DNA of 32,505 bases from Candidatus Woesearchaeota archaeon (GTDB lineage Archaea; Nanobdellota; Nanobdellia; Woesearchaeales; GW2011-AR9). Of this stretch, positions 3,830-21,408 are shown one piece after another. Both the position numbers and the translations under genes were made by a program. Within the stretch, counting starts at the first letter, position 1, and every line of letters begins with the position of its first letter. The stretch lies in contig JAAOXZ010000033.1 of NCBI GenBank assembly GCA_018221085.1, forward strand, positions 1-32,505, given 5' to 3'. Below the pieces are notes generated by a model. It was given only the letters and a program-made list of their open reading frames with translations. It did no database searches and was not told where the DNA came from.

Positions 3830-4660
3830 TCAAACCAACACTTTCTTTTTTCCTTTGTTAAAATTAAGATGATTCTCTTTAGAAATCACTTTTCTGCCGG
3901 TTTCTTTCTCCAGTTCTAATCTGGCATTTCTTGCAATTGATCCGCCTTTTTTTGAATCCTGCTCTAATTGATGAAACTTCTTGGAACCATGAGTTTGAGT
4001 GATTTCTGTGGTTGCTTTTTCTCCAAGCATAGTGAAGATAAGTTCTAAATCGTTCATGTGATCTCTCAAGTTGGCTTTTGATTGTTTTGGAATGTTTTTG
4101 AAATCTTTATGCTGCATAATCCCCATTCCGAATGTTGCTTTGCTTATTTCATTAGTTAAAATTGCAAAGTCTCTTTTTTCTTTCACTCCTCGTCTTTGCC
4201 ACTCTTCTGTTAACTCTTGTCTTATAGCAATACCTCTTAGTCTTTTATCAATCCAATCTTTAGGATAACCTTTCAATTCATAATATTCTTTCACCCTATC
4301 TTGGGCCAGTTCTGGATTTTCTATTTCTTCGATTCTTTCCTGTCCTAGTTGAGATAACCATTGTTTGAATGGTTCAGCTCTTTTAGAAGGAATTGATTGG
4401 ATTATTCTAAAAATACCTTTAGTGTTGGTGCAATTCATTCGCTGTTTCCCGCCTTTTGTCTCAACCTCAAGGGTATGTACAATTTGTACCCACCCTTTGG
4501 AAAGCCACAAATCTCTGCTTTTCAATCTTTGAATGTATTGCTTTGGATCCTCGCTTTCAGTGATAGCAAATACCACATCTTCTATAACATAATACCAGTC
4601 ATTGTTGTACCATGTCCTCCGGATACGTTTATCTTCAAATACGATTAATTTATTTGTCAT
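3830..4660 (-). CDS. BRO-N / DNA-damage-inducible protein D (DinD)-like protein
   Basis: KRIRRTWYNNDWYYVIEDVVFAITESEDPKQYIQRLKSRD (BRO-N) and LTEEWQRRGVKEKRDFAILTNEISKATFGM...TTEITQTHGSKKFHQLEQDSKKGGSIARNARLELEKETGRKVISKENHL (DinD-type). Confidence 0.8.
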   Translation of the reverse strand: MTNKLIVFEDKRIRRTWYNNDWYYVIEDVVFAITESEDPKQYIQRLKSRDLWLSKGWVQIVHTLEVETKGGKQRMNCTNTKGIFRIIQSIPSKRAEPFKQWLSQLGQERIEEIENPELAQDRVKEYYELKGYPKDWIDKRLRGIAIRQELTEEWQRRGVKEKRDFAILTNEISKATFGMGIMQHKDFKNIPKQSKANLRDHMNDLELIFTMLGEKATTEITQTHGSKKFHQLEQDSKKGGSIARNARLELEKETGRKVISKENHLNFNKGKKKVLV

Positions 4661-16815: not shown

Positions 16816-17820
16816 ATGGCTGAGATTAATTATACAAAATTAGAAGAGATACTAGAAGGTAAAAAAGAATTAGCTATCTTTACTCACACCCATCCCGATC
16901 CAGATTCTATCGGTTCTGCCTTAGGTATGCAATTATTATTAGAAGAACAATTTGGCATTAAAAGTGATATCTACTATCCTGGAAGGATTAGCAATCCCGA
17001 AAACAAAAGTTTAGTTAATCTAAATAATATTGAATTAAATCTTATTGAATCTTTTGATCCGAAAAAATACCATGGAGTTATCCTAGTCGATACTGCTAGA
17101 AGCGAATTAGTTCCGAAACCGTTGGTAATTGTAGATCATCATAAATTAGAAAAAAATAGAGTCAAGGCCCACTTAAAATATATCCGGCCGGTGGGGGCCT
17201 GTGTTACTTTGGTTTTAAAACTACTTTCTCATTATAAAATTGAATTAGATAAACAAAAACACGAACATATTATTACTGCCATGGCCCACGGCATTAGATC
17301 TGATACGGGCAAATTCACTTTAAATGTCGGAACAGAAGATGTCCTGGCTTATGCCGCCTTACATGAATCTATTAATTATGAATTATTAAGAAAAATTGAG
17401 AATCCCCTTAAGACCTCTGCTATGACAGACGCTTTAGCTAATGCCATCAAAGATCGAGAAGTTAAAAATAGTTATCTCATTTCCGGAACAGGAATCGTAG
17501 AAGAAAGCGATGCCATCCCCTTAGCTGCAGATTATTTATTGGATATGGAAGGTATTGAAACTACTATCATTTACGGCGTTGCTGATAACAGAATCCGATG
17601 TTCTATTAGAACTAAAAATTCCAATGTTAACGCTACCGAATTGGCGCAAGCTATTTTTAGCGAAACTCTGGCCGGCGGTAAAATAACTTCTGCTGGGGCT
17701 GATGTGCCTTTGGATTTTTTTAATGAACCAGAATGCGAAGATGAATTATATTCGTTAGTTAAGAAAATCATTCGAAAAAAAGTTTTTCGGGCCATCAAGA
17801 TCAAAGAAGACGAAGACTGA
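16816..17820 (+). CDS. DHH-DHHA1 phosphoesterase (NrnA/RecJ-like)
   Basis: FTHTHPDPDSIGSALG, ILVDTARSELVPKPLVIVDHHK, GGKITSAGADV. Confidence 0.88.
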   Translation: MAEINYTKLEEILEGKKELAIFTHTHPDPDSIGSALGMQLLLEEQFGIKSDIYYPGRISNPENKSLVNLNNIELNLIESFDPKKYHGVILVDTARSELVPKPLVIVDHHKLEKNRVKAHLKYIRPVGACVTLVLKLLSHYKIELDKQKHEHIITAMAHGIRSDTGKFTLNVGTEDVLAYAALHESINYELLRKIENPLKTSAMTDALANAIKDREVKNSYLISGTGIVEESDAIPLAADYLLDMEGIETTIIYGVADNRIRCSIRTKNSNVNATELAQAIFSETLAGGKITSAGADVPLDFFNEPECEDELYSLVKKIIRKKVFRAIKIKEDED

Positions 17821-17827
17821 ATAGTTT

Positions 17828-19027
17828 TTAATTAAATTCAACTAATTTCTTTTGTTTTTCCATTTCCGTGAGGAGTTTACTCTCTTTTAATAACGATTGA
17901 ATATCAAAACCAAATTTTTTCTTTACTAATTCTTCGCAATATTTTAACATTAATGATTTAGAACCAAAAGTAATGGATTTTTCGTTTAAACTTTTACGCG
18001 TTGCTTCCCGACAAACCCATACACCCAAAGGCATATTATATTCTGGCGTAATAAATCGCAGCACTAAAGCACTGTGTTGTCTTTTTAATTCTTTCATTTT
18101 TTCTAGTACTGGTAACCGCGAAGCATAATATCCTCCCGCACATTCTTGGGCATAGCTTTTCCGACCATTAAAATTTTCGTAATCCGTAGAATAAAAAGTT
18201 CCTGTTTTGCTCCAAGGGTTGACTTTGTATTCTAAATAAGTTTCAAATAATTCAAAACTCCACACTTCTGGAAAAAACAACACCAAATAATAGTTCCCCC
18301 ATCCACCACCAAAATAAACTTGGAACTCTCCAACTTGAAGTCTTTTTACTTCCTCTCCGATCTTTTTCCCAACAGTATCATCAATACTAGTAATGCTCCA
18401 GCGAGTGGGCACTAATTTTCTGTTTTTCTTGATTCCTAAATTGCCCACCGAAATTAATTTACTTAAAAAATTTTCATCAAAACCCTTCTGGTATAAGTCC
18501 CATACTCCGGAAACCGCCTTTAAATCAATATCTGAAACAATTTTATCTACTTTAGAATTCACTTTAGTATTTTCCGTAATTCTGATCTTTCTTACTTTTC
18601 CTGCAGGTCCAAAAGGGATTATTTCACTTTCTTTTTCTAAGTGTAGTTTCGGTTTATCTGTTAGATTGATTTCCAATTCTACTGGCTTCGAAGCCATCCC
18701 CACTTCTTGACACACTTCTAAAATCTTGCTTTTTTGATTTAGTAGATCATGGACTCTCGCTTTTTGTTGAGAATTAACTAATCCATAACGCATGTTAGCA
18801 ATTTTATTAATGGAAAAATTACTCGCACTCCATTCTCTGGGCGCATCATAGATTCCGGTATTTTCAGAGAATTGCGGACTCAACACCCCCACATTAACAT
18901 ATGGATAACCAAAGCGACCAATAAAGGGTGCTGGACTACTGCCAAAAAAATCTTCTTTGAAACTTTTATTTAAATTGAATTCGGGGAACCGCTCTACTTC
19001 TTTATATTTCACTCTTTTTATTTGCAT
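17828..19027 (-). CDS. nreA: Nre family archaeal DNA repair protein (NreA-like)
   Basis: GSSPAPFIGRFGYPYVNVGVLSPQ, DAPREWSASNFSINKIANMR, C-terminal QKKLVEFN (PIP-box-like). Confidence 0.88.
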   Translation of the reverse strand: MQIKRVKYKEVERFPEFNLNKSFKEDFFGSSPAPFIGRFGYPYVNVGVLSPQFSENTGIYDAPREWSASNFSINKIANMRYGLVNSQQKARVHDLLNQKSKILEVCQEVGMASKPVELEINLTDKPKLHLEKESEIIPFGPAGKVRKIRITENTKVNSKVDKIVSDIDLKAVSGVWDLYQKGFDENFLSKLISVGNLGIKKNRKLVPTRWSITSIDDTVGKKIGEEVKRLQVGEFQVYFGGGWGNYYLVLFFPEVWSFELFETYLEYKVNPWSKTGTFYSTDYENFNGRKSYAQECAGGYYASRLPVLEKMKELKRQHSALVLRFITPEYNMPLGVWVCREATRKSLNEKSITFGSKSLMLKYCEELVKKKFGFDIQSLLKESKLLTEMEKQKKLVEFN

Positions 19028-19084
19028 GGGTTTTCACAATCTCCGCAATTTATATTAATTGTTATCTTCCACCCGTTAAAAACC

Positions 19085-19188
19085 GTAAGTACTATGTCTG
19101 CTTTGCCCATTGAGGCACACGGCGCTCATGAATTAATCAATAAAACCAAGCGCCGTAACTGTGCCGTGCAAGTTGACATAGTACTTAC
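19085..19188. mobile_element. MITE-like non-autonomous element, 104 bp
   Basis: Perfect 14-bp TIRs GTAAGTACTATGTC/GACATAGTACTTAC; near-full-length palindrome; abutting 8-bp direct repeats TAAAAACC at 19077-19084 and 19189-19196. Confidence 0.65.
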
Positions 19189-19231
19189 TAAAAACCAAAC
19201 CTTTTAAAAGTACACAAAAAATTCTCTATTT

Positions 19232-20275
19232 ATGCTCACTAACAAACAAATCACCTTTATCCAAGAGGAATTAGCCACTGCTAAGAATCCTTTATTTCTC
19301 TTTGATGATGATCCCGATGGGTTATGCTCTTTTATTTTGATGTATAAAATCCACCGCGAAGGCCAAGGAACAGTAGTCAAAACCATCCCCCAAATTACTA
19401 ATCTTTTTTTAAGAAAAGTCCAAGAACGCAACCCCGATAAAATATTTATTTTAGATATGCCGATGGTGGATCAGGAATTTATCAACGCTGCTAAACGGCC
19501 TATCTTTTGGATTGACCATCATCAGCCCCTTGAACGGCAAAAAGTCCACTATTTCAATCCCAGAATAAAAAAACCCGAAGCTTATATCCCTACTACTCGC
19601 ATGGCTTATCAAATTAATCAAAATACTCAAGATTCGTGGTTAGCTATGGTTGGTTGTTTGGGTGATTATCATTTACCTGATTTCCATAAAGAATTTTCCG
19701 AACAATTTCCTAAGTTACTAAAAAAGAAAGTTACTATTGACGAAGCCATTTATCAAGAACCGATTGGTAAATTAGTCCGTGTTTTTTCTTTTCTTTTGAA
19801 GGGCCCCATTTATGAAGTTAATAAGTGTATCAAAATTCTCACTAGAATAAAATCTCCTTATGAAATTTTAGAGCAAGAAACTGCTCAAGGAAAATATCTT
19901 TACAAAAGATTTGAACGCATTGATGTTAAGTATCAAGCTTTATTACAGCAAGCTAAAAAACAATTAAACAAGAAAACTGACAAACCTTTCTTAATTTTTC
20001 CTTATGATGAACAAACCCAATCTTTTACTAGCGAATTATCTAACGAATTATTGCATCTTTATTCTCATAAAATAGTCATTGTAGCTCGGAAAAAATCCGG
20101 AGAGATGAAATGTTCTTTACGCAGTAGACACTTACCTGTGGCTCCAGCTTTGGAAAGGGCCCTAATTGGTATTGAAGGTTATGGTGGCGGTCACGAAATG
20201 GCGTGTGGAGCCTGTATTAAGGAAGAAGATTGGCAGCAATTCTTAATTAATTTTGAGAGGGAACTGAATGCTTAA
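19232..20275 (+). CDS. DHH superfamily phosphoesterase (RecJ/GAN-like)
   Basis: FLFDDDPDGLCSFILMYKI, ILDMPMVDQE, FWIDHHQP, GGGHEMACGACI. Confidence 0.88.
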   Translation: MLTNKQITFIQEELATAKNPLFLFDDDPDGLCSFILMYKIHREGQGTVVKTIPQITNLFLRKVQERNPDKIFILDMPMVDQEFINAAKRPIFWIDHHQPLERQKVHYFNPRIKKPEAYIPTTRMAYQINQNTQDSWLAMVGCLGDYHLPDFHKEFSEQFPKLLKKKVTIDEAIYQEPIGKLVRVFSFLLKGPIYEVNKCIKILTRIKSPYEILEQETAQGKYLYKRFERIDVKYQALLQQAKKQLNKKTDKPFLIFPYDEQTQSFTSELSNELLHLYSHKIVIVARKKSGEMKCSLRSRHLPVAPALERALIGIEGYGGGHEMACGACIKEEDWQQFLINFERELNA

Positions 20276-21118: not shown

Positions 21119-21408
21119 ACGAGAGGGCCAGCTAGGCTGGGGGGTTAGCTCTCCCTTGTTACCATCAACGAGCTTTATGGTGGAGCCGAAGCCCAAGGAA
21201 GGGATAATTTTGTTTTGCTGGTCTTAAGCGTCTTTGCTGACGGTTTGTCCTTTGGGATGGACTTGTTGGGAACCAGGTCAGGCCGGGAACGGAGCAGCCT
21301 TAACTTTCAATCTTCATGTTCAAAGGGTCGCAAACTCGAGAAGCGTTTAAGGTTAAGCTGGTGAGGCTTTATTGTTTCGACTGCGGGCGTGCCCCTAAAC
21401 TCTTCTTC
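21119..21408 (+). ncRNA. SRP (7S) RNA
   Basis: CCAGGTCAGGCCGGGAACGGAGCAGCCTTAA domain IV core (GGAA loop, AGCAG asymmetric loop) and 5' GGCCAGCTAGGCTGGGGGGTTAGC Alu-like region; TATA-like TTTAAAAAT upstream; ends approximate. Confidence 0.9.

What the first reader, a model, noticed from the sequence alone, without database searches (positions are those of the whole stretch)
19077..19196. MITE-like palindromic element with exact 8-bp target-site-type duplication between two divergent promoters
Seen in sequence: GTAAGTACTATGTC (19085-19098) and its perfect reverse complement (19175-19188) bound a 104-bp block. Inside it, GGCACA/TGTGCC and CGGCGCT/AGCGCCG arms make it nearly one long hairpin. 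TAAAAACC abuts both outer ends exactly (19077-19084 and 19189-19196). Known: TIRs plus abutting short direct repeats are the hallmark of DNA-transposon-derived, non-autonomous elements (MITEs). Inference: a mobilised element inserted between nreA(-) and a DHH exonuclease gene(+), just upstream of the latter's TATA-like CTTTTAAAAG (19200-19209). It may alter BRE/activator spacing or encode a stable hairpin RNA.
Basis: partly seen in the sequence, partly recalled or inferred. Interest (0 to 1): 0.82.

Follow-up and report, generated by a model that had tools for sequence, protein, structure and literature searches.

The report
MITE family with conserved folded core
A 104-base jumping DNA element that cannot move by itself has landed just upstream of a gene in a tiny archaeon; about 150 relatives in many genomes share an oddly unchanging folded core, even though their ends are those of two unrelated transposon families.

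Summary
The window copy (TSD 19077-19084/19189-19196, 14-bp perfect TIRs) is one of five dispersed copies in this Woesearchaeales genome. Fourteen elements with these ends show a duplication of exactly 8 bp (85% identity in the 8-bp register against 32% expected; other lengths near background). Relatives with the same nre/DHH gene pair lack the element.

The larger result was not foreseen. Core-bearing copies share a conserved structured interior: the internal loop 5'-GCC(A/C)AnnGA / 5'-GTGC between covarying helices. 96% of pair cells are paired and 24 of 27 pairs have compensatory changes. Covariance models find it in 25 of 359 genomes of the order, up to 28 copies in one genome. Outer ends are of at least two kinds: GTA-ends, found around an IS66-family transposase, and GG..CTGTC ends, found around an IS6-family transposase. 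Neither autonomous element contains the core, and the window's TIR type bounds core-less MITEs elsewhere. Core and ends are therefore separable modules.

Copies are intergenic, show no strand preference and cluster 35-75 bp upstream of start codons. The core's function is unproven; I favour a single-strand-folding element that aids spread. Confidence: MITE 0.93, IS66-type mobilisation 0.65.

The parts
19077..19084 (.). left copy of the 8-bp target-site duplication TAAAAACC
19085..19098 (+). left terminal inverted repeat GTAAGTACTATGTC (type A; family consensus GTAAGTAATATGTC)
19100..19103 (+). inward extension of the outer stem (GCTT), pairs with 19170-19173 (AAGT)
19105..19113 (+). 5' strand of the nearly invariant internal loop, GCCCATTGA (family GCC(A/C)AnnGA)
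19114..19118 (+). core stem, 5' side GGCAC, covaries with 19161-19165
19119..19156 (+). apical stem-loop with variable sequence (stem 19119-19126/19149-19156)
19161..19165 (+). core stem, 3' side GTGCC
19166..19169 (+). 3' strand of the nearly invariant internal loop, GTGC
19175..19188 (+). right terminal inverted repeat GACATAGTACTTAC
19189..19196 (.). right copy of the 8-bp target-site duplication TAAAAACC
19201..19210 (+). TATA-like CTTTTAAAAG of the downstream gene, 4 bp beyond the duplication (context, not part of the element)
   Evidence: promoter role inferred
17828..19027 (-). nre gene, left neighbour (context)
   Evidence: PF04894, PF04895
19232..20275 (+). DHH/DHHA1-family gene, right neighbour (context)
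   Evidence: PF01368, PF02272

Best explanation
[quoted passage not shown] SHOWN: multicopy, 8-bp duplications at unrelated sites, and absence from the same gene pair in relatives. INFERRED: an IS66-family (ISBst12-like, single-ORF) transposase acting in trans cut or copied it in at a TAAAAACC target. Its interior is a conserved structured core found in about 150 elements of Woesearchaeales: an internal loop GCC(A/C)AnnGA/GTGC between helices that covary. SHOWN: that core rides inside elements with IS66-type ends and inside elements with IS6-type ends, while neither autonomous element found contains it, and core-less MITEs use the window's TIR type. INFERRED: the core is a separable module that folds on one strand (hairpin ssDNA during replication or transposition, or RNA) and is kept because it helps the element spread, probably by bringing the two ends together or by binding a host or transposase protein at the invariant loop.
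For: Four further copies in the own genome. Exactly 8-bp duplications: identity 0.85 in the 8-bp register against 0.32 for mispaired flanks, other lengths at or close to background, 13 of 14 copies at least 6/8. Absent from the same divergent gene pair in G018 and G051, and a G026 copy is absent at the syntenic site in two congeners. IS66-family transposase (NF033517, 193.7 bits) bounded by type-B ends GTACGTATTTAGTTG/GTACGTATTTGGTTG in G033; GTAA/GTGA ends and 8-bp repeats are reported for an ISBst12-group IS66 element (PMC12898284). IS6-type ends with exact 8-bp duplications in 11 core-bearing copies and an IS6-family element with matching kind of ends and duplication. Core covariation: 96% of cells paired, 24/27 pairs compensated, score 0.713 against about 0.1 slid. 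Same TIR type on core-less MITEs. No core inside the IS66 or IS6 elements. G.U exceeds A.C at paired sites, 53 to 24.
Against: No autonomous element with the window's exact type-A ends was found in the 89.6% complete assembly. The own-genome IS66-like gene has ends only partly like type A. The G033 IS66 copy shows no target duplication. No base-exact empty site is available. Nothing shows directly that the core acts in transposition; the G.U excess comes from an alignment fitted to the structure, and related copies are not independent.
Confidence: 0.6

Rival explanations
1. An ordinary MITE whose palindromic interior has no function; the core looks conserved only because copies descend recently from one another.
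For: Many copies in one genome are close (84-88% to the window copy in G000); MITEs often have passive interiors (established knowledge).
Against: The loop strands stay nearly invariant in 88 copies from 17 genomes while helices change by compensatory pairs and outer ends differ entirely. Mean core identity between genomes is only 0.62-0.64 over core and apical stem together, so the invariance is not due to recency.
Confidence: 0.2
2. The core is a dispersed structured non-coding RNA (own promoter or read-through) whose gene has been mobilised by several transposons and is kept for a cellular or parasitic RNA function.
For: Strong covariation; G.U excess over A.C; several copies carry extra hairpins at defined places, as variable arms of RNAs do.
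Against: No Rfam match; no orientation bias relative to neighbouring genes, 23 sense against 25 antisense; patchy presence in 25 of 359 genomes of the order; no expression data.
Confidence: 0.18
3. A resident regulatory or ncRNA element of the nre/DHH promoter region, not mobile.
For: It lies between divergent promoters, 4 bp from a TATA-like box.
Against: Homologous copies lie at unrelated loci. DHH loci fetched from 29 other genomes have no core match, and the two with the same divergent gene pair (L207, L222) lack it.
Confidence: 0.02

Closest known systems
IS66 family, ISBst12 group (single-ORF), and MITEs derived from such elements
   Same: GTA-type ends and 8-bp target duplications; a relative carries an IS66-family transposase between ends of the sister type B (PMC12898284).
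   Different: No autonomous element with the exact type-A ends found; the interior is not an internally deleted IS66 element but a structured core absent from the IS66 copy.
Archaeal IS6-family elements and their MITEs
   Same: GG..CTGTC-type ends with 8-bp duplications bound many core-bearing relatives; an IS6-family transposase with such ends lies in G033. Archaeal members are considered only distantly related to IS6/IS26 (PMC6807381).
   Different: The window copy itself has GTA-type, not IS6-type, ends; the IS6 element found has no core.
Archaeal MITEs described earlier (e.g. the 44 in 30 archaeal genomes of PMC3852290)
   Same: Short, non-coding, multicopy, TIRs, sometimes direct repeats; some without a known autonomous partner.
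   Different: Those are recognised by their ends or by similarity to a parent IS; here the middle is conserved and the ends are exchangeable.
REP/BIME and related intergenic palindromes
   Same: Intergenic imperfect palindromes in many copies.
   Different: Here there are 8-bp duplications and DDE-type TIRs; REPs are linked to single-strand tyrosine transposases (PMC2817692, listed; not tested here).

Membership tests
MITE (non-autonomous DNA transposon) | terminal inverted repeats | tested here: met
   perfect 14-bp TIRs
MITE (non-autonomous DNA transposon) | target-site duplication of fixed length abutting the TIRs at unrelated sites | tested here: met
   8 bp, identity 0.85 against 0.32 expected, 14 elements
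MITE (non-autonomous DNA transposon) | short, no transposase gene, several dispersed copies | tested here: met
   104 bp, five copies in the genome
MITE (non-autonomous DNA transposon) | presence/absence at orthologous sites | tested here: met
   absent from the same gene pair in L207 and L222; G026 copy absent in two congeners; base-exact empty site not obtained
MITE (non-autonomous DNA transposon) | TIR identical to that of an autonomous element | tested here: inconclusive
   found for sister class B, not for the window's class A
IS66-derived element | GTA-type ends and 8-bp duplication | tested here: met
   ISBst12-group element with GTAA/GTGA ends and an 8-bp repeat in PMC12898284
IS66-derived element | an IS66 transposase with the same TIR in the genome | tested here: not met
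   own-genome IS66-like gene on C70 has ends GGGAGTAATAAGTT.., 10 of 14 positions like type A by eye; assembly 89.6% complete
described ncRNA family (Rfam 15) | match above the family's gathering score | tested here: not met
resident ncRNA gene at this locus | conserved at the orthologous locus | tested here: not met
structured nucleic acid (class not assigned) | compensatory base-pair changes beyond shuffled and slid controls | tested here: met

The most novel reading that the evidence does not exclude
The core is an independently evolving structured nucleic-acid module (ssDNA hairpin or RNA) with one nearly invariant internal loop that has been taken up by MITEs of at least two unrelated transposase families (IS66-type and IS6-type) across an archaeal order, and that promotes their spread through a factor shared by both.
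Probability: 0.4. Interest if true: 0.8.

Novelty: new variant of a known kind. Interest (0 to 1): 0.6.

Why it matters
MITEs are normally defined by their ends, and the middle is treated as filler. Here the middle is the conserved part and the ends are the exchangeable part. That implies a selected function inside a non-autonomous element and gives a defined 13-nt loop to test. If the core helps DDE transposases of two families, it would be a portable transposition enhancer; if it is an RNA, it is a mobile ncRNA family in an almost unstudied archaeal group. The elements also sit just upstream of core promoters in very compact genomes, where they could move regulatory boundaries.

Tried and rejected
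Rfam scans at gathering and permissive thresholds: only SRP RNA elsewhere in the window; the SpF10 hit on one relative is far below its cut-off and not repeated on the window copy. Autonomous type-A element: solo TIR-like sites in G000, G010, G287, G018, G275 and G026 were inspected; none bounds a transposase, and several bound other MITEs. Viral contigs: no core in the three pattern scans that ran, and five chance TIR matches without a second end. Cis-acting mRNA element: rejected for lack of orientation bias. Exchange of cores between TIR classes within a genome: no clear signal. Integron attC sites and REP/RAYT were considered and set aside, because the duplications and DDE-type ends point elsewhere; no integrase or RAYT search was made. 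Literature: no DPANN or Woesearchaeota MITE paper in the open library, which does not exclude subscription papers.

Full report
Observation. The described features are present at the stated coordinates: two exact TAAAAACC copies abutting perfect 14-bp inverted repeats, with an almost continuous hairpin between them. The fold is far beyond composition (RNA z = -8.6, DNA z = -7.65). The TATA-like decamer is one base off (19201-19210). The neighbours are Nre (PF04894/PF04895, minus strand) and a DHH/DHHA1 protein (plus strand).

It is mobile. The genome (G000; 851 kb, 92 contigs, 89.6% complete) holds four other copies besides the window copy, one of them (C78) with a large insert in its loop. 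For 14 elements whose TIR ends are clear, flank identity in the 8-bp register is 0.85 against 0.32 for mispaired flanks; every other length from 5 to 12 bp gives 0.34-0.44 against 0.31-0.35. Five are exact 8/8, including the window copy. The other four own-genome copies have decayed to 6/8. The window copy's intact duplication and perfect TIRs suggest it is the youngest of the five (inference). DHH orthologues were found in 40 of 41 genomes searched (own genome included); in the 29 relatives whose loci were fetched no core lies near the gene, and the two with the same divergent nre-DHH pair lack it. A G026 copy is absent at the syntenic site in congeners G277 and G278. Those intergenic regions are too diverged to show a base-exact empty site.

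Which transposase. Type-A ends (GTAAGTAATATGTC) resemble type-B ends (GTACGTATTTAGTT[A/G]), both with 8-bp duplications. A 16-genome search for PF03050 found two IS66-family genes. The one in G033 (437 aa, NF033517 193.7 bits) sits between GTACGTATTTAGTTG and the inverted GTACGTATTTGGTTG, that is, type-B ends; the first of these is also an end of MITEs in G006. No duplication is visible around that IS66 copy. An ISBst12-group IS66 element with one ORF, GTAA/GTGA-type ends and an 8-bp repeat is described in PMC12898284. The own genome carries an IS66-like ORF of at least 839 aa at C70 with ends ..GGGAGTAATAAGTTTTTTGTG, only partly like type A, on a contig that stops at the repeat. No autonomous type-A element was found, so IS66 mobilisation of the window copy is an inference, not a demonstration.

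The unexpected core. Alignment of copies from different genera showed an almost unchanged interior: GCC(A/C)AnnGA + GGYRC ... GYRCC + GTGC. A covariance model found copies in 18 of 51 genomes of the family, up to 28 per genome, and a second model in 25 of 359 genomes of the order, including six outside the family (in that run only 11 candidates per genome were scored). On 88 copies, 96% of pair cells are standard pairs, 24 of 27 pairs show compensatory changes, and the covariation score is 0.713 against 0.06-0.11 for slid partners. The two loop strands are nearly invariant. At paired sites G.U exceeds A.C (53 against 24 distinct site-genome cases, p = 0.001). If both DNA strands were equivalent these should be equal, so one strand's fold appears to matter, with the caveat that the alignment was fitted to the structure.

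Core and ends are separable. Many core-bearing copies have IS6-type ends (GGCGCTGTCCAGAA, GGTCTTGTCCAGAA, GGCTCTAGCCGGAA); eleven have exact 8-bp duplications. An IS6-family transposase element in G033 has GG.GCTGTCAAGTTAA / TTGACTATACC ends and the duplication AAATAAAC. Conversely, Woesearchaeota RIFCSPHIGHO2_02_FULL_38_13 (G287) has MITEs with the consensus type-A TIR, 8-bp duplications and a different interior. No core match lies in the IS66 or IS6 elements or in those core-less MITEs. Some elements contain the motif twice, nested in opposite orientation (L122, L129, L081).

Position. Of 95 copies examined with crude ORF calls, nearly all are intergenic: 31 between divergent genes, 48 between co-directional genes (23 sense, 25 antisense) and 9 between convergent genes. 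Distances to start codons pile up at 35-75 bp (53 of 110 sides; 25 +/- 4 expected for uniform placement) and avoid the last 35 bp (15 against 32 expected). The window copy, about 44 bp from the DHH start codon and 4 bp from the TATA-like box, is typical. Either insertion avoids, or selection removes, copies inside core promoters. The lack of strand bias argues against a cis-acting mRNA element.

Interpretation. The window feature is a MITE with IS66-type ends (confidence 0.93 for MITE, 0.65 for IS66). The family is unusual because the middle, not the ends, is conserved. I think it most likely that the core folds on a single strand and helps transposition or replication of the element through a protein binding the invariant loop; a dispersed ncRNA is the main rival. 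Neither is shown. No earlier description was found in the open-access library, which is incomplete.

Noticed in passing
L010/L154 (G010:C108:29742-29999), L234 783-1121 and L233 377-713 (G006): Larger core-bearing elements carry in the apical loop a second multi-hairpin domain; the G010 and G006 (L234) versions share TTTAGTC[C/T]GTG..ATGTCCACAG-hairpin-CTGGGA[T/C]GCCA-hairpin-TGTGCGAATG although they are from different genera.
   Followed up: no
L165 5868-6096, L041 1501-1670, L091 near 4523-4617, L232/L235/L236: Small double hairpins (hairpin-GCRC-hairpin) sit exactly inside the conserved internal loop of some copies, as if the loop were a preferred insertion site or tolerated extra arms.
   Followed up: no
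L172 4997-5149, L175 1216-1419, L179 1085-1289 (G287); L181 618-806 (G010): MITEs with the type-A TIR but a different, core-less interior.
   Followed up: partly
L271 (G000:C70): Own-genome IS66-like ORF of at least 839 aa with a long N-terminal extension, on a contig that stops at an inverted repeat GGGAGTAATAAGTTTTTTGTG.
   Followed up: partly
window 16816-20275: nre lies between two DHH/DHHA1-family genes (16816-17820 and 19232-20275).
   Followed up: no
window 21125-21395 (+): Archaeal SRP RNA gene, 117 bits.
   Followed up: no
G023 C11, C13, C21; G032 C1; G033 C38, C85: Contigs end at or within about 100 bp of core elements, suggesting recent near-identical copies that break assemblies.
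   Followed up: no
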